Virus record (IMG/VR): IMGVR_UViG_3300013102_000005
Location: 29,778 to 93,777 of that record
Source of the DNA: a virus
DNA length: 64,000 nt
Strand: one strand, 5' to 3'
A model generated the notes under the pieces. It saw only the letters and a list, made by a program, of their open reading frames with translations. It had not been told where the DNA came from and made no database searches. Shown in pieces: positions 2,737 to 38,171 of this stretch. Within the stretch, counting starts at the first letter, position 1. The number at the start of each line of letters is the position of its first letter. Position numbers and translations under genes: made by a program.

Positions 2737-2776
2737 TGTAGCAGTTGATAAAATTTAAAATCTATCGCCTGCTACA
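2737..2776 (-). promoter_or_regulatory. Paired operator sites and promoter for the 2.7-kb operon
   Basis: Two palindromic sites of the genome-wide motif: TGTAGCAGTTGATAAA at 2737-2752 and TCTATCGCCTGCTACA at 2761-2776, centres 24 bp apart, with an AT-rich spacer. On the minus strand TACAAT overlaps the first site and is a plausible -10 hexamer. The pair lies between the terL stop and the next gene's start. Identity of the binding protein is unknown. Confidence 0.55.
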
Positions 2777-2779
2777 AAT

Positions 2780-4318
2780 CTACCGGATGCCCATGGCCGC
2801 CAGGGTCCTCGCCACCGCGTCGTCCTTGCGCTCGGAGACGGCCAGCACCTGCACGTCCTCGCTCTGGATGTAATGGGCGTTCTCCAGGAAGGCAAAGGCG
2901 ATGGTGTCCCAGATGTCAGGGGAGGGCAGGCCTTCCTTCTGCTGCATGTCGATCTTGCTCATCAGCTGCCACCGGCCTTTCTCGTCGAAACCGAAGGGGA
3001 TGCGTGAGCCTTGGTCGAGCATGTCGTTCTGCTGGGCATCGCAGAAGCTGATTCGGTTGTTGTCCACGGCCAGTTTCAGGTGCACGTTGCACTGGGCCCG
3101 CTGGTTGATGAAGCGCTCGCGGTATTCTTTGCGGAAGTTCGGCACGCCCCAGCTCACGTTGGTGATCAGGGGTACGCCCAGGCGCTCCAGCATCTTGGCG
3201 AACTGGATGCCCTGGCCACCGACGTCCACCAGCACGGTGCAGTTCGAGTATTTGGCAGCCTCCAGCGCCACCATGGCCGCCGCGTCCGTCCAGTCCCGGC
3301 TGTTGGTGTAGATCGGGATGTCCAGGACGTCCACCCGCCTGGGCTCGGGCGCCTCCGACCCGCCCTGGCCGATGACCCGCACGAGGGTGCCCACCGTCTT
3401 GTCGCGGTAGACGCCGCCGCCCACGTCCACCAGCAGGAAGTAGCCGTAGGGCTCGTCCTCGCCGATCACGCGATGCTCCTCGCCGATCAGGCGCTCGATG
3501 GAGCGCCGGCCGAGCAGGTACTTGTCGGAATGCTCGGGGAACCGACCCTGGACCTTGACCTGGTACTCCACGGAGTCGCGGCTGCCGTACTCCAGCGCCT
3601 TGTCGCGGATGAACTCGTCCGAAACGATGGGCGAGTCCTCGGAGTTGAACACGAGGCTCGTCCAGAGCCCTCCGTTGCGTACCGCCCACTTGTGATGGGT
3701 CTCGTAGAAGAAGCCCGACCCCCGGGTAGGCTGGCTGGCCAGCGCAAAGCGGTTGCGCTTGTCGGTCAGGGCGCCGGCGATGACCTTGAGGTTCGCGTCG
3801 GGGATACCCGAAGCCTCGTCACCCAGCCACAGCAGGTAGTTGCCGTGCGTACCGGCCATGTTCTCCGGCGAGCCGCGCGGTGCCGTCCGGCAGGTGATGA
3901 ACCAGCGCATGCTGGCGCCTTTGACGTAGACCTTCTTCGCCTTGATCTCGAAGTATTCGGCCACCCAGCCCTGCGGGCCCTGCTCGATCACCTCCTTGAG
4001 GGTCGAGAACTCTTTCCAGATGCCTTCCGACAGGGTGTTGAGCTTGGGCGCGGTCAGGTAGGTGTTGCTGTCCGCGTAGCAGAGCAGGTGCCACAGGGCG
4101 ATGACGGCAAAGGAGCGGGTCTTGCCCGTACCGTGACCGGACGACACTGAGGTGCGCGAGCCGAAGGGGGAGACACTGTTGAACAGGTCCACCTGCTGCC
4201 AGGTGATCGAGGTCATGCCGCAGACCTCTACGGCGAAGCGCGCCGCATCCATCGCATAGCGCTCGGCGAAGGCCTTCCAGCGGACATCGGCCGAGAGGGC
4301 CCGGATCTTCTTAGCCAC
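2780..4318 (-). CDS. terL: Terminase large subunit
   Basis: 512-residue DNA packaging motor: an ATPase that drives DNA into the capsid and a nuclease that cuts concatemers. Walker A is SSGHGTGKT (residues 59-67), Walker B is LLWLGDE (162-168). The RNase H-like nuclease domain supplies Asp298 (LLVDVGGG), Asp365 (VLVDVGGQ) and Asp468/Asp471 (PDIWDT). Start is GTG, overlapping the stop of the 53-residue gene upstream. The partner small subunit is not adjacent but lies about 22 kb away at 26.5-27.4 kb, which is unusual. Length is normal for the family. Confidence 0.93.
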   Translation of the reverse strand: MAKKIRALSADVRWKAFAERYAMDAARFAVEVCGMTSITWQQVDLFNSVSPFGSRTSVSSGHGTGKTRSFAVIALWHLLCYADSNTYLTAPKLNTLSEGIWKEFSTLKEVIEQGPQGWVAEYFEIKAKKVYVKGASMRWFITCRTAPRGSPENMAGTHGNYLLWLGDEASGIPDANLKVIAGALTDKRNRFALASQPTRGSGFFYETHHKWAVRNGGLWTSLVFNSEDSPIVSDEFIRDKALEYGSRDSVEYQVKVQGRFPEHSDKYLLGRRSIERLIGEEHRVIGEDEPYGYFLLVDVGGGVYRDKTVGTLVRVIGQGGSEAPEPRRVDVLDIPIYTNSRDWTDAAAMVALEAAKYSNCTVLVDVGGQGIQFAKMLERLGVPLITNVSWGVPNFRKEYRERFINQRAQCNVHLKLAVDNNRISFCDAQQNDMLDQGSRIPFGFDEKGRWQLMSKIDMQQKEGLPSPDIWDTIAFAFLENAHYIQSEDVQVLAVSERKDDAVARTLAAMGIR

Positions 4319-4472
4319 GCGCGCGCTCCGCCTTGAGGCGCGCCAGGGCCTGCTCGATGAGTTCCAGCGAGGTGGCGGCTACCAGCATCGTCAGGCAGTC
4401 CTGGGCGACGGTCAGCTGGTGGTCGTCGATAGCGGCGGCCTGAGCGCGGCGCCGGCGCTTGGCTTTAGGCAT
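4311..4472 (-). CDS. Small basic protein preceding terL
   Basis: 53 residues: a very basic N-terminus (KAKRRRRAQ) followed by a predicted amphipathic helix. The stop codon TAA overlaps the GTG of terL, so the two are translationally coupled. Its place directly before TerL would fit a packaging accessory, but it is too short for a standard small terminase and a clear TerS exists elsewhere. Function unknown. Confidence 0.55.
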   Translation of the reverse strand: MPKAKRRRRAQAAAIDDHQLTVAQDCLTMLVAATSLELIEQALARLKAERARG

Positions 4473-4618
4473 GATGTGGGTATCCAGAAAAAGTCAGGAA
4501 ACCCTACTGGCGCCCAGATAAGGGCTAGCTGTTCACTTTCCCATCCAAGCGCTTCGGCAAGATGATTACTGCTGGTATGCTCGCAGTATTAACTCATGCA
4601 GGCCAGGATCGCAAAGTA

Positions 4619-5530
4619 ATGATGTATATAGAAGAGCTGGCATTTAACAGCGTGGAAGAACTACTTAATCATGTGGTTCCATGGGGTTCTAACCCAGAAC
4701 TCGACGGTTATATTTTTCGAGGGCATAGCCAGGAGTCGTATCTACTGGTGCCGCTTGCACTTCGGTCTGACAAATTGGATTTGCTATGCAACGCGGCTGG
4801 TTTCACTATAAATGATAAGCGTGAAATGAACCTTTTCGACCAGGTGCAAGCCGAATATCAAATATTGAGGAGATTCTATCGCTTGGCAGACCAGAGGGGA
4901 TTGCCTGTTCCGATCAGTACTCGCATTCGCGAAGATCTGGCATCAAAATCCTCGTCAATCATGAATTTCAAAGCCAAGCACACTGATACTTGGATTCCAC
5001 CGGACCTGCATGAAGCAGCGGCACTAGCCCAGCATTATGGTATGCCCACCAGACTTCTCGATTGGACATACGACATTTTTGTAGCGATGCATTTTGCATT
5101 CAAAGGTGCGATTAAAAAGGAGGATAACCTTTGTATCTGGGCGCTAAATATGGCCCACCTTTCGTGGCTAACTCCAACTGTAGAGGCTGTAGGTGTTGAC
5201 TTCGTGACTCCTCATTATGCCGGCAATCCGCATTTAAACGCCCAAAAAGGCCTGTTTACTCACATGCCTAGTTTTTTCCCCCATACTGTACAGATCCATC
5301 ATGATGTAAATAACGTCGAAAAAATAACTGGGCCAATCGATAGAGCGCCATTTGACGAAACGCTACGGGGGCGATTTGCCAATATAGAAGAAAATATATT
5401 TAAGAAATTCATATTGCCTTGCTCTGAGGCCAAGAAGGGGCTCCAGATACTGGACAACCTAGGCTATGACGAGTCTAGGATATATCCAGGGTATAAAGGT
5501 GTAGCTAATCAGCTGCTACACCCTAATTAA
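4619..5530 (+). CDS. FRG-domain protein, candidate defence or exclusion gene
   Basis: 303 residues matching the FRG domain: FRGH (residues 33-36), HYGMPTRLLDWT (139-150), NPHLNAQKG (203-211) and IYPGYKGVAN near the C-terminus. FRG proteins are frequent in mobile elements and defence islands, with no established biochemical activity. The gene is plainly AT-richer than its neighbours, sits alone on the plus strand between terL and the early genes, and converges with a membrane-protein gene (15-bp overlap). These are signs of lateral acquisition. AGGA lies 10 bases before the chosen ATG; an earlier ATG at 4562 lacks a ribosome site. A role against competing phages is inferred from context. Confidence 0.8.
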   Translation: MMYIEELAFNSVEELLNHVVPWGSNPELDGYIFRGHSQESYLLVPLALRSDKLDLLCNAAGFTINDKREMNLFDQVQAEYQILRRFYRLADQRGLPVPISTRIREDLASKSSSIMNFKAKHTDTWIPPDLHEAAALAQHYGMPTRLLDWTYDIFVAMHFAFKGAIKKEDNLCIWALNMAHLSWLTPTVEAVGVDFVTPHYAGNPHLNAQKGLFTHMPSFFPHTVQIHHDVNNVEKITGPIDRAPFDETLRGRFANIEENIFKKFILPCSEAKKGLQILDNLGYDESRIYPGYKGVANQLLHPN

Positions 5531-6079
5531 GCTACTCAGCCAGCCGGCTATTGCTGCACTAATAGTCTGTGCACGCTCATATGTCTCGGCAGGAAATGCA
5601 AGGTATAGCGATCCCCAGATAGCTAATACAGCAGACATTACACTGTAGCCCGCCCCTTGCGCCAGAACCCTTGGCAATGTGACTTCGTCATGATATTGAA
5701 TTTGGGCTAGGCAGCTATCGACCCTGGCTCTATTTATTTTATAAAGCATTTCGAAACGCGCCTTGTCCTCATCAACTACCTTTCTTAGCTCTTCAATGTC
5801 TTTAGTAATCTGTGCAAGCGGATTTTTTGTATTAATGCCCATCAGGCTTGCGGTATATCTGAACGTATAGGACGGCGCGTCATTCCACTCCGGTAGGTAT
5901 TCTTCAAACTTCGCATCTTTTGCAGATCTCGCCTTGATAGCATTGCGGGCTGCCAGATAAATAGTAATCGCCGAAGAGATTCCTACCAGCAACATTCCAT
6001 ACGCGAGAAAGTAATTATTGGGGAATAGGCCAAGCACGACCGTTCCAACTAGCACAGATATGAATGCGAGAACGGCCAT
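5516..6079 (-). CDS. Membrane protein convergent with the FRG gene
   Basis: 187 residues with two N-terminal hydrophobic segments (about 3-19 and 24-44), a charged coiled-coil-like cytoplasmic region with DIEELRKVVDEDKARFE, and a third hydrophobic stretch near 150-170. Low G+C like the FRG gene, with which it overlaps by 15 bp tail to tail. No family recognised. A membrane partner or an immunity component for the FRG protein is conceivable; nothing in the sequence proves a link beyond position and base composition. Confidence 0.65.
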   Translation of the reverse strand: MAVLAFISVLVGTVVLGLFPNNYFLAYGMLLVGISSAITIYLAARNAIKARSAKDAKFEEYLPEWNDAPSYTFRYTASLMGINTKNPLAQITKDIEELRKVVDEDKARFEMLYKINRARVDSCLAQIQYHDEVTLPRVLAQGAGYSVMSAVLAIWGSLYLAFPAETYERAQTISAAIAGWLSSLIRV

Positions 6080-6123
6080 GAATGGTTATCCATTGAGGAG
6101 GCAGGACGGGCCCGCACTGTATC

Positions 6124-6513
6124 TCACAGGGCGGGTTGGGCGACACGGTAACGACCGCGCTTTTTACCACCAGGTGGTTGGTAGGCTGCGCAGCATGCCT
6201 TGCAGTGGGCCCGCACACGCGTGACCACACCTTTGACCCTCACCAGACCGAAGAACTCGCCGTCGTTCGGCCACCACTCCTGGCACTGGGTGCAGAGCTT
6301 TTCCTCACCGTACTCGGCCTGGCGCATCTGGGGCACGGTCGCCCGTTTGCGCCGGCGGCCGTTGGCCTTGGTCGGCTCCCGCACGGGCTCATCCGGCGGG
6401 GTTTCTGGCCACTCCATTTCCAGCACCAGCCGGTCGCGCTGCTCGCGCTCGAACCGGTAGAGGATGGCGAAGATGGGATCGCCCTGGAATGGCGTGGAGG
6501 CGAGCATCTGCAT
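6124..6513 (-). CDS. Zinc-ribbon protein
   Basis: 129 residues. The C-terminal half has CTQCQEWWP, a spacer, then HCKACCAAY, the pattern of a small phage zinc ribbon also seen in HNH/endonuclease VII-like proteins, but no nuclease His/Asn pair is evident. A basic GRRRKR patch precedes it. The start has AAGGGG and lies next to the stop of the DUF3268-like gene. Confidence 0.6.
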   Translation of the reverse strand: MQMLASTPFQGDPIFAILYRFEREQRDRLVLEMEWPETPPDEPVREPTKANGRRRKRATVPQMRQAEYGEEKLCTQCQEWWPNDGEFFGLVRVKGVVTRVRAHCKACCAAYQPPGGKKRGRYRVAQPAL

Positions 6514-6516
6514 GGC

Positions 6517-6978
6517 TCACCCCTTGGCGCCGAGGTAGGCCCGGCAGGCCTGGCCAGCTCGCACGCACAGCTCCAGATCGAACAGCCCGAAGTGGCACCG
6601 GTCGGGCGTCAGCCCCAGCTGCTCGGCAAGCCAGCGATAGGCCGCGCTTCTGGAGAGGTGCCCATCCCGCCAGATCAGCTCAAAGGGCGCCTTGTGCAGC
6701 TCGCGAGCCTTGCGTAGGGACTCATCGGCCAGGGTGCCCAGCGGCAGATTGGTGGAGGGGTGAAGCCCTACCCGTGCATCGCACCCGGTGCAGCCGTAGA
6801 CCCAGGGCCAGTCGCCGTAGCTGCGGCCGTTGTAGATGTCGTGGTGATGCTTGATCACCACCGCTCCACCGCAGCAGGGACACACAGTCGGGATGGCCAA
6901 CGGGTCTTTCACCCGCGCGATCGCCCGCCGACTCGGATTGCTGGGCGTCTTGACCGCCGACGCGACCTCACTGCTCAT
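6517..6978 (-). CDS. DUF3268-like zinc-finger protein
   Basis: 153 residues with CPCCGG and CTGC pairs around a conserved-looking IYNGRSYGDWPWVYGC segment and a helical C-terminus containing SRSAAYRWLAEQLG. The layout matches the zinc-finger DUF3268 family found in phages. The start ATG overlaps the end of the ParB-like gene by 11 bp and has GGGAGG upstream. Function of the family is unknown. Confidence 0.65.
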   Translation of the reverse strand: MSSEVASAVKTPSNPSRRAIARVKDPLAIPTVCPCCGGAVVIKHHHDIYNGRSYGDWPWVYGCTGCDARVGLHPSTNLPLGTLADESLRKARELHKAPFELIWRDGHLSRSAAYRWLAEQLGLTPDRCHFGLFDLELCVRAGQACRAYLGAKG

Positions 6979-7951
6979 CGCCGTCCTCCCGCGCCTTCTC
7001 GGCTGCCTTGAGCTCGGCCTTGCGCCGGTTCTCCTCGTGGGTTTCGCGCACGTGCCGGGCCGTGGCCACCACCGCATTGAGCGAGCGGATGGTCAGGGGC
7101 ACCGTCATGCTGCCCAGGACCGTCTCACCGGTGCGGTAGCGCTCCACCTGCTCCAGGATCGACTCGGGCAGCTCGGCCACGAGCTGGAGCGAGGCGGCCA
7201 GCAGGTCCTCGGACAGAGCGCGCGGGATGGCTGGGGGCAGGGCGGGCAGTGCCTTGCGGGTCTTGCGCTCCTCCAGCATCTTGGGAGTGACCTTGGCGCC
7301 GCCGGCTTCCTCGCTGATCGTGCGGATCTCGGCGGCCGCCTCCTCCCCAAATGCTCGAAGGGCCTTCACGGCGGTGCCGGGGGCGATGACGTCCTGGTCG
7401 ATGAGGTCGCGCACGTCCTCGCCGCCATGGGCAATCTTGAGCAGCTGCTCCACGTACTGGCGAGAGAACCCCACGAGCTTGGCAATCTGGGCGGCTGGTA
7501 GGCCGTCGGTTTCGGCGAAGTCACGCACCACATCGGCCAGTTCGACCGGATCCAGCGGCTCCTGGCTCTGGGAGGTGACAATGCGCGCCTTGCACTCCAG
7601 CTCGTTGCCGATGAAGGGTTTCAACCCGATCAGCGGGATGGTGTAGCCCCAGGACTCCAGCAGGCGCAGCGCACGAATGCGGCGGTGCCCCTCGATCACC
7701 TTGAGTCCGCCCTCGGCCCGCGCCTGGACCTCGATTTGCGGCAGGACGTTGTTGATGTCCACCAGCGTTTTGGTCGCCTTGTCCTTGATCAGGCTGCGAG
7801 CGCTGCGCTCGATGCTGGCGTCCAGCTTGGGACCCTCGCGGCGCTTGTTGAAGCCGGGCGTGAAATGGAACTGGTCCAGGGCGGCAAACATGCCTTTGTC
7901 GGTGCGCTTGATGATCTTCTCGTTGATCATCTTTTGGATCGAATTACTCAT
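6968..7951 (-). CDS. ParB-like nuclease-fold DNA-binding protein
   Basis: 327 residues. VIEGHRRIRAL (about residue 100) is the conserved ParB/Srx box, followed by a helix-turn-helix, LPAAQIAKLVGFSRQYVEQL. The C-terminal third is charged and probably coiled coil. No parA lies next to it; the ParA of this element is at 48 kb with its own ribbon-helix-helix partner, so this protein is more likely a regulator or phage DNA metabolism factor than the centromere binder. Translationally coupled (ATGA) to a 38-residue gene upstream; AGGAG precedes the start. Confidence 0.75.
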   Translation of the reverse strand: MSNSIQKMINEKIIKRTDKGMFAALDQFHFTPGFNKRREGPKLDASIERSARSLIKDKATKTLVDINNVLPQIEVQARAEGGLKVIEGHRRIRALRLLESWGYTIPLIGLKPFIGNELECKARIVTSQSQEPLDPVELADVVRDFAETDGLPAAQIAKLVGFSRQYVEQLLKIAHGGEDVRDLIDQDVIAPGTAVKALRAFGEEAAAEIRTISEEAGGAKVTPKMLEERKTRKALPALPPAIPRALSEDLLAASLQLVAELPESILEQVERYRTGETVLGSMTVPLTIRSLNAVVATARHVRETHEENRRKAELKAAEKAREDGDEQ

Positions 7952-9474: not shown

Positions 9475-9512
9475 TCAAGCATATGCTACAATTATTTATA
9501 TCGCATGATATG
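9475..9512 (-). promoter_or_regulatory. Paired operator sites
   Basis: TCAAGCATATGCTACA (9475-9490) and TATATCGCATGATATG (9497-9512) fit the genome-wide palindrome, with centres exactly 22 bp apart, two helical turns. They lie in an AT-rich gap upstream of the 94-residue gene. A less perfect match also occurs at 9599-9612 inside the next gene. Confidence 0.55.
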
Positions 9513-10482: not shown

Positions 10483-11225
10483 GCCTGGGCCTCACGCCAG
10501 CCGGCGAGCACCGTCCCAACGATACGCACCACCTCGTCCTGGGTAGCGGGGGCCGGCAGCGGAGAGCCGTATGCTTCACCGCGCGGATGGTAGGCGAACC
10601 CCTGGCCAGTCATAGGCAAGCCGAGCTGGAGGATCTCCACGGCGAAGCCCTGGGCCTCGATGCGGTGTGGCAGGTGGGCGTCCAGGGTGTAGCGCTCGCC
10701 CATGCGGTGAATACTCGCGCGCTGCTTGCGCAACTGCACCTGGCGCGCAAAACCACTGGCCAGGCGCAGGCTATTGACCGGCTGGCGCAGCAGGACGCCG
10801 TCGCTGTTCTGCCCGACCTCCTGGAACGAGGTGCACAGCAGGCCGCCGGCCAGGACGAGGGACTCATAGCCGCGCGCCTGGCTGCCGAGGTCACTGACGT
10901 CGGCGCAGCGATCGATAGCGCTCCAGATCCGCAGCTCGACCAGGCTGGACAGCCGGCAGGACAGCAGACCGGCCCGATCAATCACCCAGGGCAAGGCCAA
11001 GGTGCCGGCCAGGGACTTCTCCAGCAGCTGGCGCACCTCCAGCCGAGTGGCGGCGATGGTGAGGGTATCGCCGATCCGTGCGTCCACACGGCCGCGCTTG
11101 GCGGCCTTCTTTTCGGCCTTGGTTGGCCGGGCACCCTGGCGCAGGCGAACCGGCTGCGGGCGGCGGGGCGCGGTGTCAGGATTGGCGGCGACGACAAGGC
11201 TTTCGCCGGCAGTGATTTCGTTCAT
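10479..11225 (-). CDS. Hypothetical phage protein
   Basis: 248 residues. A proline- and lysine-rich N-terminus leads into a mainly helical body and a C-terminal part with GEAYGSPLPAPATQDEV. Coupled to the next gene through an ATGA overlap. No family recognised. Confidence 0.5.
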   Translation of the reverse strand: MNEITAGESLVVAANPDTAPRRPQPVRLRQGARPTKAEKKAAKRGRVDARIGDTLTIAATRLEVRQLLEKSLAGTLALPWVIDRAGLLSCRLSSLVELRIWSAIDRCADVSDLGSQARGYESLVLAGGLLCTSFQEVGQNSDGVLLRQPVNSLRLASGFARQVQLRKQRASIHRMGERYTLDAHLPHRIEAQGFAVEILQLGLPMTGQGFAYHPRGEAYGSPLPAPATQDEVVRIVGTVLAGWREAQA

Positions 11226-11563: not shown

Positions 11564-11765
11564 GTGGAGTCTCCTCGATAACGCCAGCAGCTTGCGCCAT
11601 GGCCAGGCCCGCCTCGGCGATGACATTCCGGCGCGCGACGCTATCGAGCTGGTCGGCCAGATCGAGCAAGGCCAGCAGCTCGGCACGCGGCCACACCACG
11701 GTGGCATAGGCGCCGCCGGCGGAGAGCAGCTGCTGGCGCAGCAGATCCCGCTGATCCTTATCCAT
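11547..11765 (-). CDS. Small helical hypothetical protein
   Basis: 72 residues from the ATG preceded by GAGGTG. Contains a leucine-rich helix LLALLDLADQLD. Its start overlaps the end of the 105-residue gene upstream, so it is probably coupled. Function unknown. Confidence 0.5.
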   Translation of the reverse strand: MDKDQRDLLRQQLLSAGGAYATVVWPRAELLALLDLADQLDSVARRNVIAEAGLAMAQAAGVIEETPRAPDA

Positions 11766-12075
11766 GAGCTGGCACCTCACGCCCGCTGATCGCTGTCTCC
11801 AGCCTGGCCACGAGGCCGGCCTCGGAATGCTGGGCAGGGTTGGCGCTGACCGACACCTGCCAGCTGAGGACGCCGTAGCACTCCACTAGAAGATTGAGCA
11901 GCAGGGTGTCACGGGCGGCCGCCTGCTGGATGGCCTGGGCGGTCGTGGCCATGACCATCTGATTGACGATGCGGATGGCCTCGAACTGTGAGGGCGCAGG
12001 CTCGCCCAGGAACTGGTCGGCGGCCTGCTTGAGGTTGCGCATGGTGGGGCTGGAGAGCGGGTAGGCGGTGGGCAT
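11758..12075 (-). CDS. Hypothetical protein
   Basis: 105 residues from the ATG with GGAG upstream; a longer frame would run across an inverted repeat and is unlikely. Helical, no motif. It heads a transcript below the operator at 12159-12174 and is followed by two overlapping small genes. Confidence 0.5.
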   Translation of the reverse strand: MPTAYPLSSPTMRNLKQAADQFLGEPAPSQFEAIRIVNQMVMATTAQAIQQAAARDTLLLNLLVECYGVLSWQVSVSANPAQHSEAGLVARLETAISGREVPAHG

Positions 12076-12384: not shown

Positions 12385-12400
12385 TGTATCATCTGATACA
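12385..12400 (-). promoter_or_regulatory. Perfectly palindromic operator site
   Basis: TGTATCATCTGATACA is a perfect palindrome around a TC dinucleotide and the best single example of the motif in the window. It lies 30 bp before the start of the 61-residue membrane protein gene. Confidence 0.6.
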
Positions 12401-12436: not shown

Positions 12437-12658
12437 CTACAGATCCGGCTTGATCAGGTCGAATCGCGTGCAGAAGCTCAGGAAGAGGCGTCCGTTCATT
12501 TCGTGCTTGCCCTCCTCGTAGTAGCCCCACATGCGTGCCGTCACGCCGATGCAGGCGGCGGCCGCAGTTGGCGAGACGTCGGCCAGCTTGCGGGCCAGCG
12601 CCACCTGTTCCTTGGTGGGGCTGGGGAAGGTCTTAACGTTCAATCGGCGAGCGGCCAT
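12437..12658 (-). CDS. Small helix-turn-helix protein
   Basis: 73 residues. DVSPTAAAACIGVTARMWGYYEEGKHEMN has the spacing of an XRE-type helix-turn-helix followed by a recognition helix. GGAG overlaps the preceding stop at good spacing. A DNA-binding regulator is likely; targets unknown. Confidence 0.6.
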   Translation of the reverse strand: MAARRLNVKTFPSPTKEQVALARKLADVSPTAAAACIGVTARMWGYYEEGKHEMNGRLFLSFCTRFDLIKPDL

Positions 12659-15324: not shown

Positions 15325-16560
<1,236 letters not shown>

Positions 16561-17240: not shown

Positions 17241-17384
17241 TTACTCGTCGTCGTCCTGGAGGCTTTCGAGCAGGGTGTCCACGTCGTCACGCAGCTCTTC
17301 GAGGCCCTCACGGGTTTCGGAGCGGCTGCGGGAGGTGTCGCCGAAAAAGTCTTGGATGCTTTGCTTGACGGAGTCGAGGGTCAT
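17241..17384 (-). CDS. 47-residue acidic protein
   Basis: Too short for most gene callers, but it has an ATG with AGGTGG upstream, a composition unlike noncoding DNA (an acidic helix ending DDVDTLLESLQDDDE) and sits directly below the operator/promoter at 17446-17483. No family recognised; small acidic early proteins of phages often bind host enzymes, which is only a suggestion here. Confidence 0.55.
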   Translation of the reverse strand: MTLDSVKQSIQDFFGDTSRSRSETREGLEELRDDVDTLLESLQDDDE

Positions 17385-17430: not shown

Positions 17431-17483
17431 CGCCGGAAGTATTTTCGCATCAGGTGATACCAATCTCAATAGCAGATGCTACA
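17431..17483 (-). promoter_or_regulatory. Regulated early promoter with two operators
   Basis: Sites at 17446-17461 (CGCATCAGGTGATACC) and 17468-17483 (AATAGCAGATGCTACA) have centres 22 bp apart. On the minus strand a -35 TTGAGA and a -10-like GAAAAT are 17 bp apart, so one operator sits between the hexamers and the other just upstream of -35. The same arrangement recurs at 20.1 and 26.3 kb. Confidence 0.65.
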
Positions 17484-19509: not shown

Positions 19510-19834
19510 CGCAGCTTTCCTGGCCCTGCTCGCGCATCACCCGGAAGGCGTCGCGGATGTCCTGGCAATGCAGCTCGCCCGACACTTCAACGTGCCGCAG
19601 CGCGGTAGCCACAAAGGTGCGCACCTGCTCGTCGCTCCAATGCTCGGGTGCGTCCTGACGTTCGGCCGCTTTCTTCCAGTCGGTATAGCGGACCCACGCG
19701 CCCATTTCGTTCGGCACCATGAGGGCGCTCTCGAAATGCTCGGAGCTGATCGACAGCAGGAAGCACTCAGGCTGGGCCAGAGGGATAGCCGCTCCAGCAG
19801 CGGGCGTGACAGCAGTTTCGGTCTGGGCGCTCAT
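19502..19834 (-). CDS. Hypothetical protein
   Basis: 110 residues from the ATG just inside the upstream gene's end. FLLSISSEHFESALMVPNEMGAWVRYTDW is beta-like and is followed by helices. No family recognised. Confidence 0.5.
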   Translation of the reverse strand: MSAQTETAVTPAAGAAIPLAQPECFLLSISSEHFESALMVPNEMGAWVRYTDWKKAAERQDAPEHWSDEQVRTFVATALRHVEVSGELHCQDIRDAFRVMREQGQESCDV

Positions 19835-20076
19835 GCCGTGGCCTCTTCGTCTACCGGGGTGCAATGGCTCAGCATGACGCAGCCGGACTTGTTCTCCAGC
19901 CAGACCACCGCAGAGTGTCCGCTCAGCACCTGGGCCTCGCTGCGGGTCTTGGTGCGCAGGGTGGTTTCGCTACGGCCGCGCACTTCCTGGTAGTCCACCA
20001 CAGTGCCGATCGCATGCTCAGCGTTCCAGGCGGCGCATTCCGCCTCCAGCTGCTTGAGTGTTTTGGGTCGTGCCAT
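19831..20076 (-). CDS. Small hypothetical protein
   Basis: 81 residues starting MARPKTLKQLEAECAAWN with GGAG upstream. First gene of the transcript controlled by the promoter and operators at 20141-20178. The beta-like C-terminal half ends in an acidic tail. Function unknown. Confidence 0.55.
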   Translation of the reverse strand: MARPKTLKQLEAECAAWNAEHAIGTVVDYQEVRGRSETTLRTKTRSEAQVLSGHSAVVWLENKSGCVMLSHCTPVDEEATA

Positions 20077-20127: not shown

Positions 20128-20178
20128 TGCGAAGCATCTTCCCATCGGGTGAGGCTCATTTCAATAGCAGATGCTACA
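20128..20178 (-). promoter_or_regulatory. Regulated early promoter with two operators
   Basis: AATAGCAGATGCTACA (20163-20178) and a degenerate CCCATCGGGTGAGGCT (20141-20156), centres 22 bp apart. On the minus strand TTGAAA and GAAGAT are 17 bp apart, placing the second site between -35 and -10 as at 17.4 and 26.3 kb. Confidence 0.6.
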
Positions 20179-29498: not shown

Positions 29499-29973
29499 GT
29501 CGGTCTCACTGGTCTCGGGTTGCTGCTGCATGGCTGCATGGGTCAGGACGCCGGCGCCGGTCGCGCTGCGTACTCACCGATGCACCCTTGCGGGGTTCGG
29601 GCCGGTTGCCACTCCCGGCGATCACCCTCACCAGCGTCGCTGGCCAGGGCATCGGCTTCACCCTGTGCGGCCACTGCCAGCCAGGGAGGTCTTGGGCGAG
29701 GCGGTGGAGTTGAACCACCGAGTCGGGATGATGAGTCCCGTCTTGCACCGGCATGCCTCGCAGTGCTCATGCCCTCTTGACGCCCGTTGCCGGGGAGGAC
29801 TTACGACTGGGTCCCGCCATTGGGCCAGCCCACTCCGTTGGGCGACCCTGCCGAGGAGGTTGCCGGCAGGCGTATCAGCTGTGTGGGATGGTGGCCCTAC
29901 GCTCTCCACACCCACGTATCCAGGCTATCCCTCCGCGAGGGCCGCCCTGGCACGGTGTTTCCAATCCCTCAGC
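29499..29973. other. 475-bp intergenic region holding a tRNA-like element
   Basis: Besides the tRNA-like element at 29693-29761, the minus strand has a CCTGCCG/CGGCAGG stem and a GCCCA/TGGGC stem further upstream. Short open frames exist but none has convincing coding features; the 75-codon frame over the tRNA-like element is rejected. It probably carries structured RNA and the XRE gene terminator. Confidence 0.4.
29693..29761 (-). tRNA. tRNA-like element, anticodon CAT, reduced D-arm
   Basis: Read on the minus strand: a 7-bp acceptor stem GCGAGGC/GCCTCGC, an anticodon arm CGGGA-CTCATCA-TCCCG (anticodon CAT), a 4-base variable region, and a canonical T-arm GGTGG-TTCAACT-CCACC. CCA follows the acceptor strand directly. 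Only 14 bases separate the acceptor and anticodon stems, too few for a normal D-arm, and position 37 is C rather than a purine. It is therefore either a degenerate phage tRNA-Met or a tRNA mimic. Confidence 0.5.
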
Positions 29974-30717
29974 TCAAGCGAACAAGTCGCCGCTCGGGCT
30001 GCGTTCGGCCTGGGCCCGGTCGCGCAGGTCGGCGCGATCGGCGATCAGGTCGATGCTGATTTGCTTAACGTTCTGCGCGGTGGACTGGCGCATCCGGCGA
30101 TCAAACTCACCGTTGGCCACCTGGAACTCGCGCTCGATGATTTCGCAGTGCTTCAACTCGCCCGCGATACGGGCATCCGCACCGGTGATGACGTCTTCAA
30201 GGCCGCGCAGAGCCGCCTCCAGCGTTGCCGAGCCGCGCCACTCCTCCTCGTACTCGGGATTGAGCTGGGCCATGCGGCGATGGGCGTGCTTCACGTCCTT
30301 GAGCTTGATGGCGATACGCTGGAGGTCGGAGCGGTCCTGGTTCTGGCCCTGGAGGGCGACACCCACCTGCTGGGCCAGATACTCGTGGTAGCGGCTGGTG
30401 GACTCGGCGATGGTGTTGGCCACCAGCCTGACGCGAAAGCTCTGGTTGTTCTCGGCAGCGTCGGCCAGGGGGTCGTCGCTGGTGCCGGACAGGTAGTCCA
30501 GAGGTACTGCGAACAGCTCGGCCATGCCGATCATGTCCAGCAGCTTGGGCATGCGCTCACCGCTCTCCCAAAGACTGATCTGGGTAGCGTTTTCGTGTCC
30601 CAAGTGATGCGCAACTGCGTCCTGGCTCATGTCCGCCAATTTGCGGGCAGCGTAGATGCGGCAACCTATGATCTGGCGCAGCTTTGCGGCTCTTTCGGCA
30701 GCGGTCGGAATGGCCAT
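29974..30717 (-). CDS. XRE-family transcriptional regulator
   Basis: 247 residues. Residues about 10-75 form an XRE helix-turn-helix: GCRIYAARKLADMSQDAVAHHLG, then ATQISLWESGERMP. The C-terminal 150 residues are helical and probably mediate oligomerisation; there is no LexA-type autoprotease Ser/Lys motif. A repressor, possibly maintaining lysogeny. Its own promoter overlaps an operator of the genome-wide motif and is preceded by two different inverted repeats at 30787-30836, which could be its binding sites. Confidence 0.8.
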   Translation of the reverse strand: MAIPTAAERAAKLRQIIGCRIYAARKLADMSQDAVAHHLGHENATQISLWESGERMPKLLDMIGMAELFAVPLDYLSGTSDDPLADAAENNQSFRVRLVANTIAESTSRYHEYLAQQVGVALQGQNQDRSDLQRIAIKLKDVKHAHRRMAQLNPEYEEEWRGSATLEAALRGLEDVITGADARIAGELKHCEIIEREFQVANGEFDRRMRQSTAQNVKQISIDLIADRADLRDRAQAERSPSGDLFA

Positions 30718-30745: not shown

Positions 30746-30782
30746 TGTAGCAAATGATAGAAATATCACACCCTAACCGCAA
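30746..30782 (-). promoter_or_regulatory. Promoter of the XRE gene with overlapping operator
   Basis: On the minus strand -35 TTGCGG (30777-30782) and -10 TATCAT (30754-30759) are 17 bp apart. The palindrome site TGTAGCAAATGATAGA (30746-30761) covers the -10. This places the XRE gene under the same regulator as the early operons. Confidence 0.65.
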
Positions 30783-34477: not shown

Positions 34478-34827
34478 GCCGCAATCTCCAATCCAGTAAG
34501 CTCCAATACCCGCGCCGGCACGTCGTGCCCCAGGCGCAGCAGTTCCTCGGCGATGCCCTTGAGCACCTGCTCCTGGGCGCCGTAGTGCGCCTCCCACCGC
34601 CGCTTGTGCGGGTGCACCGCCAGCGCGGCGCCGTTGTCCTGGTGATGGGGCTCGCACAGCGGCAGCACCAGCCAGTGGGCGTCGGGCTTGGTGCGGCCGT
34701 CGATGTGATGGATCGAGACGTAGCTGTTGAAACCATGGCCATCGGCTGCGCAGCACACGCAACCGATCACCTGGGCAAGCAAATCGTGCCAGCGCTTCTG
34801 CACCGGACTCGGGGTGGTTCCAAACAT
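34474..34827 (-). CDS. Ref-like HNH recombination nuclease
   Basis: 117 residues. KRWHDLLAQVIGCVCCAADG, SIHHIDGRTKPDAHWLVLPL and CEPHHQ match the P1 Ref family, an HNH-type nuclease that acts on RecA-bound DNA. The His-His-Asp and His-His of the HNH core are visible. GGAG precedes the chosen ATG. Works with host RecA by analogy; not shown here. Confidence 0.8.
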   Translation of the reverse strand: MFGTTPSPVQKRWHDLLAQVIGCVCCAADGHGFNSYVSIHHIDGRTKPDAHWLVLPLCEPHHQDNGAALAVHPHKRRWEAHYGAQEQVLKGIAEELLRLGHDVPARVLELTGLEIAA

Positions 34828-34870
34828 GACCGGACTCCAGCGCCCCAGGCGGGGCGCTCTCGGTAAGGGG

Positions 34871-35704
34871 TTAGCCGCTGAGCTGCTGCCGCTTGGCCGC
34901 GAGGAGCCGCAGCTCCGCCTCGGCGACCTGGCGCTGGCGCGCCTCCTCGAACTCGCGCTCACGCTGCTGGAGCGATCGCGCGTCCTCGACCTTCGGTGCA
35001 ATTCGCTTGCGCCCGCCCAGGGTGCTGAGCATGTCGCTGATCATGGCCTTCTGGGCCTCCGGTGCGATGGTGCGCTTTCCCGCGCCCTTGGCTTCCGGCG
35101 CCGGCAGGTAGGCGGCCGGCTTCTCGGGATCGTAGGGCGGCGGCACGGGCAGGCCTTCCTTGCGGGCCTTCTCCAGCGCGCTGGTAAAGCGCGAGCGGAT
35201 GTCCCGCCAGGACAGCTCCTCCAGGTCCTTACCCATGGCCACGGCCGCGTGATACACCGCAGGCTCTGTCCATCGCGCCTGGCTCACCAGCTCGCCGTCG
35301 ATACGGGCCGGCCGGCGGTGCTTCGGGATCTCGCGCACGGCCTCGTGGAACGCATCCTCGGGATCCAGGCGCGGCCGGCAGGCGGCGATGAAGTCTTCCA
35401 CCGTCACCCGCCCGAACTGCATGTCCCGACGGCTGATCACCTCGCCCAGCCTGGCCAGGCCGATCTGGACCTCATCCGGCCGCAGTTGGACGACCACGAA
35501 GCGCATCGCCCAGGCCTGGCGCCAGTGCTCCAGGGAGTCTTCGCTGGTGAAGTGACGCGACCAGGCACCCGGCATCAGGCCATTGAGGCGTGCCCACAGG
35601 ATCTGCATCAGCGACAGGCCGTCCAGGGCGGGCTCGCTGGGGCAGGGCCGTGACTCAGTCCAAACGTTCGGCTTGGCCTTCGATGACATCGCGATTGCGG
35701 TCAT
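34871..35704 (-). CDS. Lambda P-like replication protein (helicase loader)
   Basis: 277 residues. The region WARLNGLMPGAWSRHFTSED, then EHWRQAWAMRFVVVQL, a later FIAACRPRLDPEDAF and ELSWRDIRSRF fit the phage replication protein P family, which loads host DnaB at the origin marked by O. The C-terminus is basic and helical. GAGGAG precedes the ATG, which lies inside the last codons of the O-like gene (50-bp overlap). Confidence 0.8.
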   Translation of the reverse strand: MTAIAMSSKAKPNVWTESRPCPSEPALDGLSLMQILWARLNGLMPGAWSRHFTSEDSLEHWRQAWAMRFVVVQLRPDEVQIGLARLGEVISRRDMQFGRVTVEDFIAACRPRLDPEDAFHEAVREIPKHRRPARIDGELVSQARWTEPAVYHAAVAMGKDLEELSWRDIRSRFTSALEKARKEGLPVPPPYDPEKPAAYLPAPEAKGAGKRTIAPEAQKAMISDMLSTLGGRKRIAPKVEDARSLQQREREFEEARQRQVAEAELRLLAAKRQQLSG

Positions 35705-36623
35705 GGGTGCGCTCCTCTCGGGTGGATTGGGTGCCTCGGGCGTTGGCCAGCGTCGGATCGAACCGCTCCTCGCGGAGATCCTGGCGAGTATTGGCCGTGG
35801 GGTCTTCGTAGATCCGCAGGAATCGCTCGGTCTTCTCGGCCTCGCGGAAGATCAGCGACAGGTCGTTGTACTTCACCTTGCCCTTGATCGGCCGGCCTTG
35901 GTCGTCACGACCCATGTGGAAGTGCGAGCGTGAACACCCGGTGATGGCGTTCAGGGTCGTGTCCAGCCCGTAGGTTCTCAAGGCGCGGTTCAGGATGGCG
36001 CGGCGTTTGGCGTCGAGCAGCGAACGGGGGGATGCCATCGAGTTCTGCCAGTGAACGAATACCCGCTCCACGAGGCGCTCACGGTCAGCAGCGGTCAGCG
36101 CAGCAAACACATCGGCCGTCACCAGGCGTCCGTCGCCAGACGGACAAGTATCTGTCTCTACTGGATTATTGTTGTTTGTATTATTCCCTTGCGTGTTTTC
36201 CGAAGGGGGGTATTCGGATTCCCGAACACACCCCTTCGGAATCTCGAAGGGGTCAGAGCCCGTGTTCGAATTATCGAAGGGGGGCAAGTCTGGGCCCCGC
36301 GTCACAGAAACCGGCGCGCCCAGTGGACGGGTCAGACGGATGATCCGGGTCTGTACCTGCTTGGTCCCCGCCTTGTATTTCAGCTCCACCGAGATCAGGC
36401 GCTTCTGCTCCAGGCCGCTGATGATCTCCGATACCCGCGACTTGGACAGGTTGAAGAACTCAGCGAAGTAGGCGTTCTTGGCGTAGCACCCGCGCTCGAC
36501 GTCATCCAGGCTGTCGATCTCCGTCAGCATCACCTTCTCGACGATGGACAAGTCCCGATCCAGCCACACCTCGGCGGGGATCCAGACGCCCTTGAATTTG
36601 CGTTTTGGCTCGAAACACGTCAC
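35655..36623 (-). CDS. Replication initiator, O-like winged-helix protein
   Basis: 322 residues, GTG start. KFKGVWIPAEVWLDRDLSIV and then KNAYFAEFFNLSKSRVSEIISGLEQK form a winged helix as in phage O and primosomal proteins. Residues 110-160 are low-complexity (NNTNNNNP), matching DNA with clustered repeats (36201-36282). The C-terminal half has VFAALTAADRERLVERVFVHW. By analogy with lambda the origin lies inside this gene and P is encoded next to it. Confidence 0.8.
   Translation of the reverse strand: MTCFEPKRKFKGVWIPAEVWLDRDLSIVEKVMLTEIDSLDDVERGCYAKNAYFAEFFNLSKSRVSEIISGLEQKRLISVELKYKAGTKQVQTRIIRLTRPLGAPVSVTRGPDLPPFDNSNTGSDPFEIPKGCVRESEYPPSENTQGNNTNNNNPVETDTCPSGDGRLVTADVFAALTAADRERLVERVFVHWQNSMASPRSLLDAKRRAILNRALRTYGLDTTLNAITGCSRSHFHMGRDDQGRPIKGKVKYNDLSLIFREAEKTERFLRIYEDPTANTRQDLREERFDPTLANARGTQSTREERTHDRNRDVIEGQAERLD
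36201..36282. other. Candidate replication origin inside the O-like gene
   Basis: CGAAGGGG occurs at 36201, 36245 and 36275, with an inverted CCCCTTCG at 36231-36238; GTGTTCG and its inverse CGAACAC flank them. An AT-rich run (36170-36190) adjoins. Iteron-like repeats inside an O gene plus an AT-rich flank are the hallmark of lambdoid origins. Binding of the O-like protein is inferred. Confidence 0.55.
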
Positions 36624-37048
36624 GCGGTCACCTCGAAAACAGTTGCAGCCGGTGCCCGACGACGGGAGCCAAAGCCGATAGAGCGGTGGAGTGACAGGGC
36701 GCCAGAGGCACTGCGGCGGCCTGTTCGCAGGTGCTGAAATTCACGCTGCGTGTTTTCTATCGACTGAGATTCGGATTCTTTAGCGGGTTTCGTGCAGCAG
36801 AACACAGACACAGATAGACCGTTCCTTGGAATATAGCGGGTTTTGTGCGCATTCTCCCCGTCTGAATTGCCGTTGACCAGTGCCGCCCGTGCCATTCGTT
36901 TGACCGGTACACCGTCAATTTTCTGTATCAATTGCGGGACAATGACGCCCGCACCTGCTGTAAAACCGTCGCCAGTCGTGCCGAATCGTCCAGCTTTTTC
37001 AGGCTGAACGATCCCGCACAGCCTTACGGCCGTGTTCGAAAATTTCAT
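36620..37048 (-). CDS. Ash-like family protein
   Basis: 142 residues. The C-terminal half (SVSVFCCTKPAKESESQSIE then REFQHLRTGRRSASGALSL) has the look of the phage Ash family, short proteins found beside regulatory or replication genes and linked to host cell death or transposition control. GGGGAAAG precedes the ATG and the stop overlaps the O-like start. Assignment is from a visual match. Confidence 0.5.
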   Translation of the reverse strand: MKFSNTAVRLCGIVQPEKAGRFGTTGDGFTAGAGVIVPQLIQKIDGVPVKRMARAALVNGNSDGENAHKTRYIPRNGLSVSVFCCTKPAKESESQSIENTQREFQHLRTGRRSASGALSLHRSIGFGSRRRAPAATVFEVTA

Positions 37049-37054
37049 GCGCTT

Positions 37055-37142
37055 TCCCCAGGCATGAGTGTTATGTCGTGCCGGCCTCGCGACCAGCTTG
37101 TTCCCCAGGTGAGAGAGGATGGAAGGGCCCCATGCCTGGGGA
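37055..37142. repeat. 12-bp inverted repeat
   Basis: TCCCCAGGCATG (37055-37066) is inverted at 37131-37142 (CATGCCTGGGGA), 64 bp apart, in the gap upstream of the Ash-like gene. A shorter copy of the arm (TTCCCCAGG) lies between them at about 37101. Possibly a regulator-binding or terminator structure. Confidence 0.35.
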
Positions 37143-37194
37143 GACGGGCCTTTTCAGCGGGGCAGCTACTCCTCGCCTATCCATCCCTTTGCCA

Positions 37195-37458
37195 CTATGC
37201 GCTAGCGGCCAGCGTGTTGCACTCGGAGCGAACCAGCTCATAGCGCACGTAGGCTTTGCCCGGTACGCGGTGGTTGATGATCGTTCCGAGCTTGTCCTGG
37301 TCCAGGTCATGCCGGATGTCTCGAATACGGGCGCTTATGGCCGAATCCGAGTCCGTTTGCACGAACCGTTCCAGGATCTTCTCGCGGATCTGGAACAGCG
37401 CCAGCGGCGCGTCCGCGTCCTCAAGAACCCTTTTTACCCTTTGATATTGACTGAGCAT
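37195..37458 (-). CDS. Small winged-helix protein
   Basis: 87 residues. YQRVKRVLEDADAPLALFQI then ISARIRDIRHDL form a small winged helix, and the C-terminus has a beta wing with GKAYVRYEL. Its start overlaps the end of the Cro/YdaS-like gene by 38 bp, so the two are coexpressed. Probably a DNA-binding accessory of the replication genes downstream. Confidence 0.6.
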   Translation of the reverse strand: MLSQYQRVKRVLEDADAPLALFQIREKILERFVQTDSDSAISARIRDIRHDLDQDKLGTIINHRVPGKAYVRYELVRSECNTLAASA

Positions 37459-37936
37459 CCGTTGGTAACCCGTCCCGCAGCTCCTGGAGTAACTCCAGTT
37501 TCGCCTGCGCCTTGATGGCGTCTTGGGCCAGGTTTCCCATTCGGAAGTACAGCGCCGACATCACGTAGTCCCACTTGATCGCATGGGAAGGGTCTTCCTC
37601 CCACACAAGCTCCCTCATATCGAGGGTGCCGCCAGACTCCTTGTCCAGATTGATGGCCAGCCAGACCGCGATATTGCGATCACCCGAGGCAACTTGCCGC
37701 AGGTGGCCCAGCGTGGTCCCGCAGCGCTTGGCGAACTCCTCACGCTGCTCCGGCGAACGGAGGTTGCGCTTGATGAACAGCCGTAACGCCACCAGGCCGG
37801 GCCTGGATTTGCGCTCCTCCTTCGCCGAATCCACGGCCCGCTTTCCCTTGGGCTTCTGGTCTAACTCCTTGCCCTGATCTTCGCCGGCCGCTCCGACGTC
37901 CTTTCCGCTCAGCCCGTTATCGGCATTCGCGTTCAT
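37421..37936 (-). CDS. Cro/YdaS-like regulator
   Basis: 171 residues from the ATG with GGAG. A charged disordered N-terminus precedes ALRLFIKRNLRSPEQREEF and GTTLGHLRQVASGDRNIAVW, the layout of the YdaS/Cro-type helix-turn-helix used as phage early repressors. It is divergent from the recT operon, and the 250-bp gap contains five sites of the genome-wide palindrome. It is the first candidate for the protein that binds that motif. Confidence 0.7.
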   Translation of the reverse strand: MNANADNGLSGKDVGAAGEDQGKELDQKPKGKRAVDSAKEERKSRPGLVALRLFIKRNLRSPEQREEFAKRCGTTLGHLRQVASGDRNIAVWLAINLDKESGGTLDMRELVWEEDPSHAIKWDYVMSALYFRMGNLAQDAIKAQAKLELLQELRDGLPTDAQSISKGKKGS

Positions 37937-37963
37937 ACGACTCTCCATGGGCTTCACCCAAAT

Positions 37964-37992
37964 AATGTAGCAAACGATACAAGTCGTGCCAA
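37964..37992 (-). promoter_or_regulatory. Promoter of the Cro/YdaS-like gene with operator
   Basis: On the minus strand -35 TTGGCA (37987-37992) and -10 TACATT (37964-37969) are 17 bp apart. TGTAGCAAACGATACA (37966-37981) covers the spacer and the -10, which suggests repression, and autorepression if the gene product is the binder. Confidence 0.7.
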
Positions 37993-38101
37993 TCACTTGC
38001 GGCATGACTTTCCCAAAAGGGACGACTTGCTCTAATCCTTTAAAGCCGCGCAGTGACATTGGTTTCCCTGACTAGATCCGTCTGCGCTTCGTCGTGTTTT
38101 T

Positions 38102-38171
38102 TGCATCACCTGCTGAAATATCGCTTGCGCAATTGACTAGCAGACGCTAGATTTTTTGAGCAGATGCTACA
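38102..38171 (+). promoter_or_regulatory. Promoter of the recT operon with three or four operators
   Basis: On the plus strand -35 TTGCGC (38125-38130) and -10 TAGATT (38148-38153) are 17 bp apart. Sites at 38102-38117, 38136-38151 and 38156-38171, plus a weaker one near 38124, match the palindrome; ACTAGCAGACGCTAGA overlaps the -10 and TTGAGCAGATGCTACA lies over the start of transcription. Confidence 0.65.

What the first reader, a model, noticed from the sequence alone, without database searches (positions are those of the whole stretch)
2737..38171. A genome-wide operator regulon with consensus TGTAKCANNTGMTACA
At least 16 matches lie in ten intergenic regions (2.7, 9.5, 12.2, 12.4, 17.5, 20.1, 20.3, 26.3, 30.7, 37.97 and 38.1 kb). 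At 9.5, 17.5, 20.1 and 26.3 kb pairs are centred 22 bp apart. Five overlap sigma70-like promoters with 17-bp spacing. The divergent Cro/YdaS-like gene at 37.4-37.9 kb and the recT operon share a cluster of sites. One repressor appears to coordinate several early operons, the XRE gene and recombination genes.
Basis: partly seen in the sequence, partly recalled or inferred. Interest (0 to 1): 0.78.

Follow-up and report, generated by a model that had tools for sequence, protein, structure and literature searches.

The report
Dispersed operator network in a phage-plasmid
About nineteen copies of one 16-base palindrome sit at the promoters of this Pseudomonas-type phage-plasmid, so one phage-encoded repressor probably switches many of its operons together, as in phage P1, and related phage-plasmids keep much of the wiring but have altered the recognition sequence.

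Summary
The window is 64 kb of a 93.8-kb virus record that looks like a phage-plasmid of a Pseudomonas lineage. At up to 3 mismatches the palindrome occurs 27 times against 2.9 expected; the 16 named copies lie between genes. A de novo palindrome search recovers TGTAgCAnnTGcTACA with score 88.8 against a null maximum of 11.1 (40 shuffles). I count 19 operators in ten intergenic regions, one of them outside the window; three pairs are centred 22 bp apart.

Four related elements carry shifted versions (TATAGCA, GKTATCA, GGWATCA half-sites) at several of the same promoters. Thirteen genomes of one related host genus show no excess. This fits a phage-encoded master repressor with dispersed operators, the P1 C1 / L5 / SPβ MrpR kind.

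Which protein reads the sites is open. I favour the XRE protein at 29974-30717 (homologs in 21 of 27 records searched), with the Cro-like 37421-37936 product as competitor. Regions next to the Cro-like gene and heading the ParB-like operon carry a site in 5 of 5 lineage genomes; the XRE promoter does so clearly in only two. Binding and repression are inferred, not shown.

The parts
2737..2776 (-). two operators (2737-2752, 2761-2776; centres 24 bp apart) between the terminase large subunit gene and the gene at 2459-2692
   Evidence: 22.8 and 17.9 bits; no site at the orthologous place in pPRS08-11306 or G001
9475..9512 (-). paired operators (9475-9490, 9497-9512; centres 22 bp apart) upstream of the gene run 9397-6124 that contains the ParB-like gene
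   Evidence: the matching region of the other four lineage genomes also holds a site ranking in the top 8 of its genome
9599..9614 (-). third operator upstream of the same gene run
   Evidence: 17.1 bits
12159..12174 (-). operator upstream of the gene at 11758-12075
   Evidence: 22.8 bits; site upstream of the ortholog in G001 and at the matching place in pPRS08-11306
12385..12400 (-). exact match to the consensus, best-scoring site of the record, between the genes at 11758-12075 and 12437-12658
   Evidence: 25.9 bits, rank 1
17446..17483 (-). paired operators (centres 22 bp apart) over a promoter-like site TTGAGA-17-GAAAAT, upstream of the gene at 17241-17384; RtcB at 15325-16560 follows
20163..20178 (-). 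operator upstream of the gene at 19831-20076
   Evidence: 21.3 bits
20274..20289 (-). second operator in the same intergenic region, overlapping the end of the next gene by five bases
   Evidence: 18.4 bits
26270..26307 (-). paired operators (centres 22 bp apart) upstream of the gene run 26208-20285 that ends with a SNF2 helicase gene
   Evidence: related sites upstream of the ortholog in pPRS08-11306 (87111, 2 mismatches to GGWATCANNTGATWCC) and G001 (80547, 4 mismatches)
30746..30761 (-). operator 28 bases upstream of the XRE gene, over its presumed -10 element
   Evidence: ranks second among 13,199 intergenic positions by the record's own matrix, which includes it
29974..30717 (-). XRE-family (HTH_3) protein, favoured reader of the sites
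   Evidence: Pfam HTH_3 E 4.7e-9, phrog_7396 E 1e-11; homologs in 21 of 27 records searched
37966..37981 (-). operator inside promoter-like site TTGGCA-17-TACATT of the Cro-like gene and replication genes
38102..38171 (+). three operators (38102-38117, 38136-38151, 38156-38171) upstream of recT
   Evidence: sites in the matching divergent region of all five lineage genomes
37421..37936 (-). Cro/YdaS-like protein ahead of the replication genes, second candidate reader
   Evidence: phrog_35 E 0.009, PDB 8co2 Cro E 0.17; matches in 4 of 27 records
38191..39249 (+). RecT single-strand annealing protein, first gene of the rightward run
   Evidence: Pfam RecT E 1.5e-20, phrog_2449 E 4.2e-79 for the frame 38164-39249
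6968..7951 (-). ParB-like protein with HTH_ParB domain, third candidate reader
   Evidence: Pfam HTH_ParB E 3e-6, phrog_1033 E 1.1e-41; matches in 5 of 27 records

Best explanation
The palindromes are operators of a phage-encoded master repressor. In the prophage (a plasmid) the repressor binds 16-bp palindromes TGTAKCANNTGMTACA in ten intergenic regions and silences both divergent early promoters (recT on the + strand, the Cro-like and replication genes on the - strand), the accessory operons, a promoter ahead of structural genes and its own gene. Pairs 22 bp apart, two helical turns, would allow cooperative binding. The favoured reader is the XRE protein at 29974-30717. The Cro-like protein at 37421-37936 probably competes for the same sites to favour lytic growth. 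Shown: the sites, their positions, and related sites at part of the orthologous promoters.
For: Non-random palindrome between genes. Using a matrix from this record only, orthologs of site-bearing genes score higher upstream than orthologs of other genes in four relatives: 23 against 76 upstream regions, pooled p 4e-5 (not independent: one own gene can count up to four times and divergent genes share a region); G025 alone 4 of 4 above 5 against 2 of 16. A length-matched test on 16 orthologous regions that I had chosen by hand gives combined p 5e-12, 9 of 16 regions at p 0.05 or less. Each relative has its own shifted consensus in the same 16-bp frame (TATAGCA, GKTATCA, GGWATCA half-sites), as expected of an element-encoded reader. 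Pattern hits within 1 mismatch in 13 genomes of a related host genus: 11, against 18 for the backwards control; 5 in the 64-kb window. For the XRE protein: matches in 21 of 27 records, against 4 of 27 for the Cro-like and 5 of 27 for the ParB-like protein; strong operators at its own promoter in this record and in G025; and sister phage-plasmids in which no relative of the other two was found have another dispersed motif, TGTACGSGGATA (70 hits in 26 records against 20 for the backwards control), with twin copies 62-63 bp apart upstream of the XRE homolog in 5 of the 17 non-lineage records that have one.
Against: No binding data. The XRE gene's own promoter has no convincing site in pPRS08-11306 and G026; in G001 a site (11.5) appears only with a matrix trained on it, and the window's matrix gives no support at that promoter in G001 or pPRS08-11306 (p 0.38, 0.27). 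The regions of the Cro-like gene and the ParB-like operon have sites in 5 of 5. Of the 17 sister records with an XRE homolog 2 have a single copy of the sister motif upstream and 10 none within 1 mismatch. In this genome and the six others compared the XRE homolog lies upstream of the terminase small subunit gene, next to it or a few genes away, where lambda-type phages keep the late regulator Q (recalled), so it may be a late regulator. A distance comparison of operators and DNA-binding domains over 5 genomes (10 pairs) favoured no candidate; two of three control proteins correlated better than any. Structure models of both candidates were poor (mean pLDDT 49.0 and 48.7). Coding positions 2463 and 7437 score as high as the weaker counted sites.
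Confidence: 0.45

Rival explanations
1. Same network, but the Cro-like protein at 37421-37936 is the main reader and the XRE protein does something else.
For: It lies ahead of the replication genes, and the 300 bases upstream of its start hold a site ranking in the top 10 of intergenic positions in 5 of 5 lineage genomes (each matrix was trained on its own genome). An ortholog was found in all five genomes in which I found the palindrome network. Its presumed recognition helix differs between relatives.
Against: The HTH assignment is weak. No match at E 0.001 in the 23 records outside G001, G025, G026 and G028, some of which have a similarly placed dispersed motif.
Confidence: 0.25
2. The ParB-like protein at 6968-7951 reads the sites, as KorB of plasmid RK2 reads dispersed operators (recalled), tying gene control to plasmid partition.
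For: ParB-family HTH above the curated cut-off. The site has the length and the CA-NN-TG core of chromosomal parS, TGTTTCACGTGAAACA (recalled). The intergenic region that I take to head its operon holds a site ranking in the top 10 in 5 of 5 lineage genomes. Matches were found only in the lineage (5 of 27 records).
Against: A separate ParA with a small RHH-like partner lies at 47498-48446, with its own palindromes nearby. The protein is the most divergent candidate between this record and pPRS08-11306 or G001 (34% and 32%), and those two differ in its helix although they share one operator type. The sites lie at promoters rather than in one centromere.
Confidence: 0.15
3. The sites are activator sites: the regulator turns on middle or late promoters and represses only some.
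For: At 17.4 kb the distal operator of the pair is centred about 41.5 bases upstream of the presumed start (worked out, taking the end of the second hexamer as -7), the classic position for an activator touching RNA polymerase (recalled); 26.3 and 20.1 kb have the same layout by eye. The XRE gene lies where a late regulator would.
Against: At 30.7 and 37.97 kb the single site covers the presumed -10 region or spacer, which fits repression; the proximal site of the 17.4- and 26.3-kb pairs also lies inside the promoter.
Confidence: 0.1
4. A host transcription factor binds the sites.
For: None found here; some phages use host LexA (GIL01, named in PMC11652158, passages).
Against: No excess of the pattern in 13 genomes of one related host genus (11 against 18 control, one genome 5 against 2), and relatives carry different consensus versions. 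The window's own host is unknown, so this was not tested in it.
Confidence: 0.02
5. The matches are chance or simple composition effects.
For: Matches in coding DNA exist (22 of 51 positions at 8 bits or more; 3 of 23 at 12 bits).
Against: 27 observed against 2.9 expected; score 88.8 against a null maximum of 11.1.
Confidence: 0.01

Closest known systems
Phage P1 C1 repressor and its dispersed operators
   Same: Phage kept as a plasmid, about 94 kb (PMC10999674, abstract in the listing); one repressor with 22 operators widely dispersed over the genome that represses lytic genes (PMC8546580, passages)
   Different: P1 operators are 17 bp and asymmetric (ATTGCTCTAATAAATTT, same passages); here 16-bp palindromes with another consensus. 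Homology of the candidates to C1 was not tested.
Mycobacteriophage L5 / Cluster A repressor and stoperators
   Same: More than twenty sites over the genome; related phages have similar but not identical site motifs that track the repressor (PMC9283540 and PMC6550527, passages)
   Different: 13-bp asymmetric sites, predicted to be bound by a monomer, most not at promoters; here symmetric and between genes at presumed promoters
SPbeta MrpR and the SPBRE element
   Same: A repeated element at many prophage promoters, proposed in silico 24 years before its master repressor was identified (PMC10516654, passages)
   Different: MrpR is a tyrosine-recombinase-like protein with a 15-bp motif; the candidates here are HTH or ParB-like proteins
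Lambda CI/Cro switch
   Same: Divergent early operons with operators between them, a Cro-like first gene (recalled)
   Different: No cI gene between the divergent operons; operators spread over about 57 kb of the record
RK2 KorB / ParB-parS
   Same: ParB-family protein encoded; dispersed palindromes with a parS-like core (recalled)
   Different: Binding untested; separate ParA and RHH-like pair present

Membership tests
Phage master-repressor network with dispersed operators (P1 C1 kind) | Many copies of one site at promoters of several operons across the genome | tested here: met
   (promoters themselves mostly inferred from position)
Phage master-repressor network with dispersed operators (P1 C1 kind) | Phage-encoded reader rather than host factor | tested here: inconclusive
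   indirect: consensus shifts between relatives, no excess in 13 genomes of a related host genus
Phage master-repressor network with dispersed operators (P1 C1 kind) | Repressor binds the sites and silences lytic genes | not testable with these tools
   needs binding and expression assays
P1 C1 family proper | Asymmetric 17-bp operator ATTGCTCTAATAAATTT | tested here: not met
   operators are symmetric with a different consensus (P1 operator from PMC8546580)
P1 C1 family proper | Repressor homologous to C1 | not tested
   no comparison with C1 was run
XRE/Cro-CI regulators (candidate 29974-30717) | HTH_3 domain above the curated cut-off | tested here: met
   36.6 bits against cut-off 23
XRE/Cro-CI regulators (candidate 29974-30717) | Operator at its own promoter | tested here: inconclusive
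   strong in this record and G025; in G001 only by a matrix trained on the site; not in pPRS08-11306 or G026
YdaS/Cro family (candidate 37421-37936) | Profile match at a curated cut-off | tested here: not met
   no Pfam match at E 1; PHROG E 0.009 only
ParB/KorB family (candidate 6968-7951) | HTH_ParB domain | tested here: met
   27.8 bits against cut-off 22.6; the KorB domain itself is below its cut-off (21.0 against 22.3)
ParB/KorB family (candidate 6968-7951) | Binding to parS-like sites, CTP use | not testable with these tools
   needs assays

The most novel reading that the evidence does not exclude
The dispersed palindromes are read by the phage's ParB-like protein, making a KorB-like circuit in which one partition-type protein also controls about ten phage operons, so that plasmid maintenance and the lytic switch are coupled.
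Probability: 0.15. Interest if true: 0.7.

Novelty: new member of a known kind. Interest (0 to 1): 0.45.

Why it matters
In this lineage of phage-plasmids the operator sequence shifts between relatives while part of the promoter positions persist. If one repressor reads the sites, immunity groups could be predicted from sequence, and the identity of the repressor is directly testable with three named candidates.

Tried and rejected
Host factor: no excess in 13 genomes of a related host genus (4 against 13 control for TGTAGCANNTGCTACA; 11 against 18 for TGTAKCANNTGMTACA). Chance: rejected. Co-variation of operators and candidate DNA-binding domains over 5 genomes: no discrimination; two of three control proteins correlated better than any candidate, a fourth control was not found in all genomes. 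By eye each candidate has a few residues that follow the operator groups, so I drew no conclusion. Structure prediction: mean pLDDT 49.0 and 48.7 from alignments of 3 and 2 sequences, too poor for a fold search, so none was run. Searches for close relatives of the Cro-like protein and of the pPRS08-11306 XRE protein in viral contigs found none. A guess that pPRS08-11306 uses GTTCAC-type sites failed. In de novo search of pPRS08-11306 and of G001 the operator motif is only sixth and fifth in the list; higher ones include an AT-rich ATTccnAATTnggAAT palindrome, several copies of which lie between genes near par and rep; I set it aside. For the relatives I ran no shuffled null. In one search I had already looked at the regions, the lowest possible p was 0.0002, 7 of 16 regions had p above 0.05, and in 3 of the 9 others the best position is not the GGWATCA-type site; one search is the less biased version.

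Dropped from the regulon: 47475, 48456 and 48571 (an ACGT core, around the partition genes), 5505 (15.5 bits, inside the open frame 4562-5530), 27513 (9.8 bits), record position 7393 (11.4 bits), and coding positions 2463 (14.9), 7437 (14.0) and 58963 (12.6 bits).

Literature: the listings name no paper on dispersed operators in Pseudomonas phage-plasmids; they show 5 of 5, 12 of 4,510, 12 of 188,261, 4 of 4 and 8 of 691 papers, from open-licence PMC only. A search for N15 SopB centromere papers returned none.

Full report
What the element is. The window is bases 29778-93777 of a 93,777-base virus record. The record has a 123-base terminal direct repeat, so it is probably a closed circle. It encodes a RecT annealing protein, terminase small and large subunits, a Rep_3 replication initiator, ParA with a small protein that matches RHH families only weakly, a tyrosine integrase and a phage replication initiation protein. 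For window 15000-39900 the best of four plasmid records is pPRS08-11306 of Pseudomonas psychrotolerans. At protein level 76 of 101 gene calls have a match at E 1e-4 in at least one of six compared genomes, mostly pPRS08-11306 and the 97.9-kb virus record G001. It is therefore most likely a phage-plasmid of a Pseudomonas lineage; its own host is not known.

The observation. TGTAKCANNTGMTACA has one exact match and 27 matches at up to three mismatches, against 2.9 expected. A de novo palindrome search of intergenic DNA returns the same motif with score 88.8; the best of 40 shuffled sets, searched with fewer seeds, reached 11.1. Scoring the whole record with a matrix of 15 sites gives 23 positions of 12 bits or more: the 19 that I call operators, one in the open frame 4562-5530 (which my gene caller missed) and three in gene calls; DNA between my gene calls is 15% of the record (partly circular, since the 15 sites were chosen between genes). 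Eighteen operators lie in the window, all left of 38.2 kb, and one at record position 10940. Three pairs are centred 22 bp apart (9475/9497, 17446/17468, 26270/26292); no other offset from 16 to 40 shows more than two partners.

Promoters. Two sites lie in promoter-like sequences that pass the tool's threshold (17469-17441 and 37992-37964). The scans found 6 against 3.4 expected and 1 against 2.9, so promoter-like matches as such are not enriched. Four weaker promoters are by eye only. At 30.7 and 37.97 kb the single operator covers the presumed -10 region or spacer, which fits repression. In the 17.4-kb pair the distal operator is centred near -41.5 and the proximal one inside the promoter, so activation there cannot be excluded.

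The regulon. Downstream of the sites lie the gene run after the terminase large subunit, including a tail-type protein (2.7 kb); the run with the ParB-like gene (9.5 kb); small genes at 12 kb; a run with RtcB (17.4 kb); genes at 20 kb; a run ending in a SNF2 helicase (26.3 kb); the XRE gene (30.7 kb); the Cro-like and replication genes (37.97 kb); and the recT run (38.1 kb). That these runs are operons is inferred from spacing and strand.

Relatives keep part of the wiring and shift the sequence. Searching with the terminase gave 29 viral-contig loci and one genome contig. In G025 (85 kb) the top de novo palindrome is tATAGCAnnTGCTATa, 14 sites, with three in the recT/Cro-like divergent region, two upstream of the XRE homolog and three upstream of the ParB-like gene. 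In pPRS08-11306 and G001 the sites read GGWATCANNTGATWCC, but they are few (5 and 8) and only sixth and fifth among the palindromes found there. In G026, by its near-identical coordinates the same element as a contig of Pseudomonas luteola NBRC 103146, they read about GKTATCA and include three copies 22 and 23 bp apart in the divergent region. No shuffled null was run for these relatives. With a matrix from this record only, orthologs of site-bearing genes score higher upstream than other orthologs: pooled p 4e-5; by genome 0.05 (pPRS08-11306), 0.017 (G001), 0.0002 (G025), 0.12 (G026). Conservation is not complete: 7 of 16 hand-chosen orthologous regions show nothing at p 0.05, among them the 2.7-kb and XRE promoters of pPRS08-11306 and G001 and the 20.1-kb promoter of pPRS08-11306.

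Who reads the sites. Three candidates. The XRE protein (29974-30717) has a match in 21 of 27 records searched, including phage-plasmids outside the lineage; the six without are 19- to 62-kb records. The Cro-like protein (37421-37936) has a match in 4 of 27 and the ParB-like protein (6968-7951) in 5 of 27, all within the lineage; G026 and G028 hold the same element. By each genome's own matrix, a site ranking in the top 10 lies upstream of the Cro-like gene and in the region that I take to head the ParB-like operon in 5 of 5 genomes, and upstream of the XRE gene in 3 of 5, the third (G001) not confirmed by the window's matrix. The case for the XRE protein rests on the sister phage-plasmids. No relative of the other two candidates was found there, yet they carry another dispersed motif, TGTACGSGGATA (70 hits in 26 records, 20 for the backwards control). 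Twin copies 62-63 bp apart lie upstream of the XRE homolog in 5 of 17 non-lineage records that have one; 2 more have one copy and 10 have none within 1 mismatch. In four records (G006, G010, G011, G012) two copies lie 22 bp apart elsewhere; for G012, which is pKF715C by length and coordinates, that place is the divergent early region. This is an argument by analogy: the sister motif could have another reader. A co-variation test did not discriminate and structure models were too poor to use.

Comparison with the known. P1 C1 binds 22 dispersed, asymmetric 17-bp operators (PMC8546580, passages). The L5 repressor is predicted to bind more than twenty asymmetric 13-bp sites as a monomer, and in related phages site motifs drift together with the repressor (PMC9283540 and PMC6550527, passages). 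SPbeta MrpR binds a 15-bp element at ten named promoters, an element proposed in silico 24 years earlier (PMC10516654, passages). The present case would work like these; its operators are symmetric and its reader is unidentified. I file it as a new member of a known kind.

Limits. All conclusions are from sequence. Gene starts are from my own caller, which missed genes, for example the frames 4562-5530 and 43109-44584. Host-genus counts come from one genus that may not be the host of this phage.

Noticed in passing
G006, G009-G012 and NZ_AP015032, NZ_CP070504, CP048608: Sister phage-plasmids carry a different dispersed motif, TGTACGSGGATA, with twin copies upstream of the XRE homolog in several and copies 22 bp apart elsewhere.
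   Followed up: partly
window 47475-47490 and 48571-48586: Palindromes with an ACGT core (ATTACGTCAT, ATGACGTCAT) flank the ParA/RHH-like pair at 47498-48446; possibly its operator or centromere.
   Followed up: no
CP018759.1: The 114,250-base plasmid record repeats its first 60 bases at 94243, and sites and genes near its start recur near its end, so the true circle is probably about 94.2 kb.
   Followed up: partly
window 4562-5530: FRG-domain protein on the + strand, against the surrounding genes, in a stretch of low G+C (51% for 4001-6000 against about 65%), possibly a cargo or defence gene.
   Followed up: no
window 29694-29761: tRNA-Met (cat) gene downstream of the XRE gene.
   Followed up: no
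L003, L004, L014: Many genes of pPRS08-11306 share the start context AGGACATCACCATG; one gene of this record has it exactly and one in close form.
   Followed up: no
pPRS08-11306 and G001 intergenic DNA: An ATTccnAATTnggAAT palindrome, stronger than the operator in de novo search; several copies lie between genes near par and rep.
   Followed up: no
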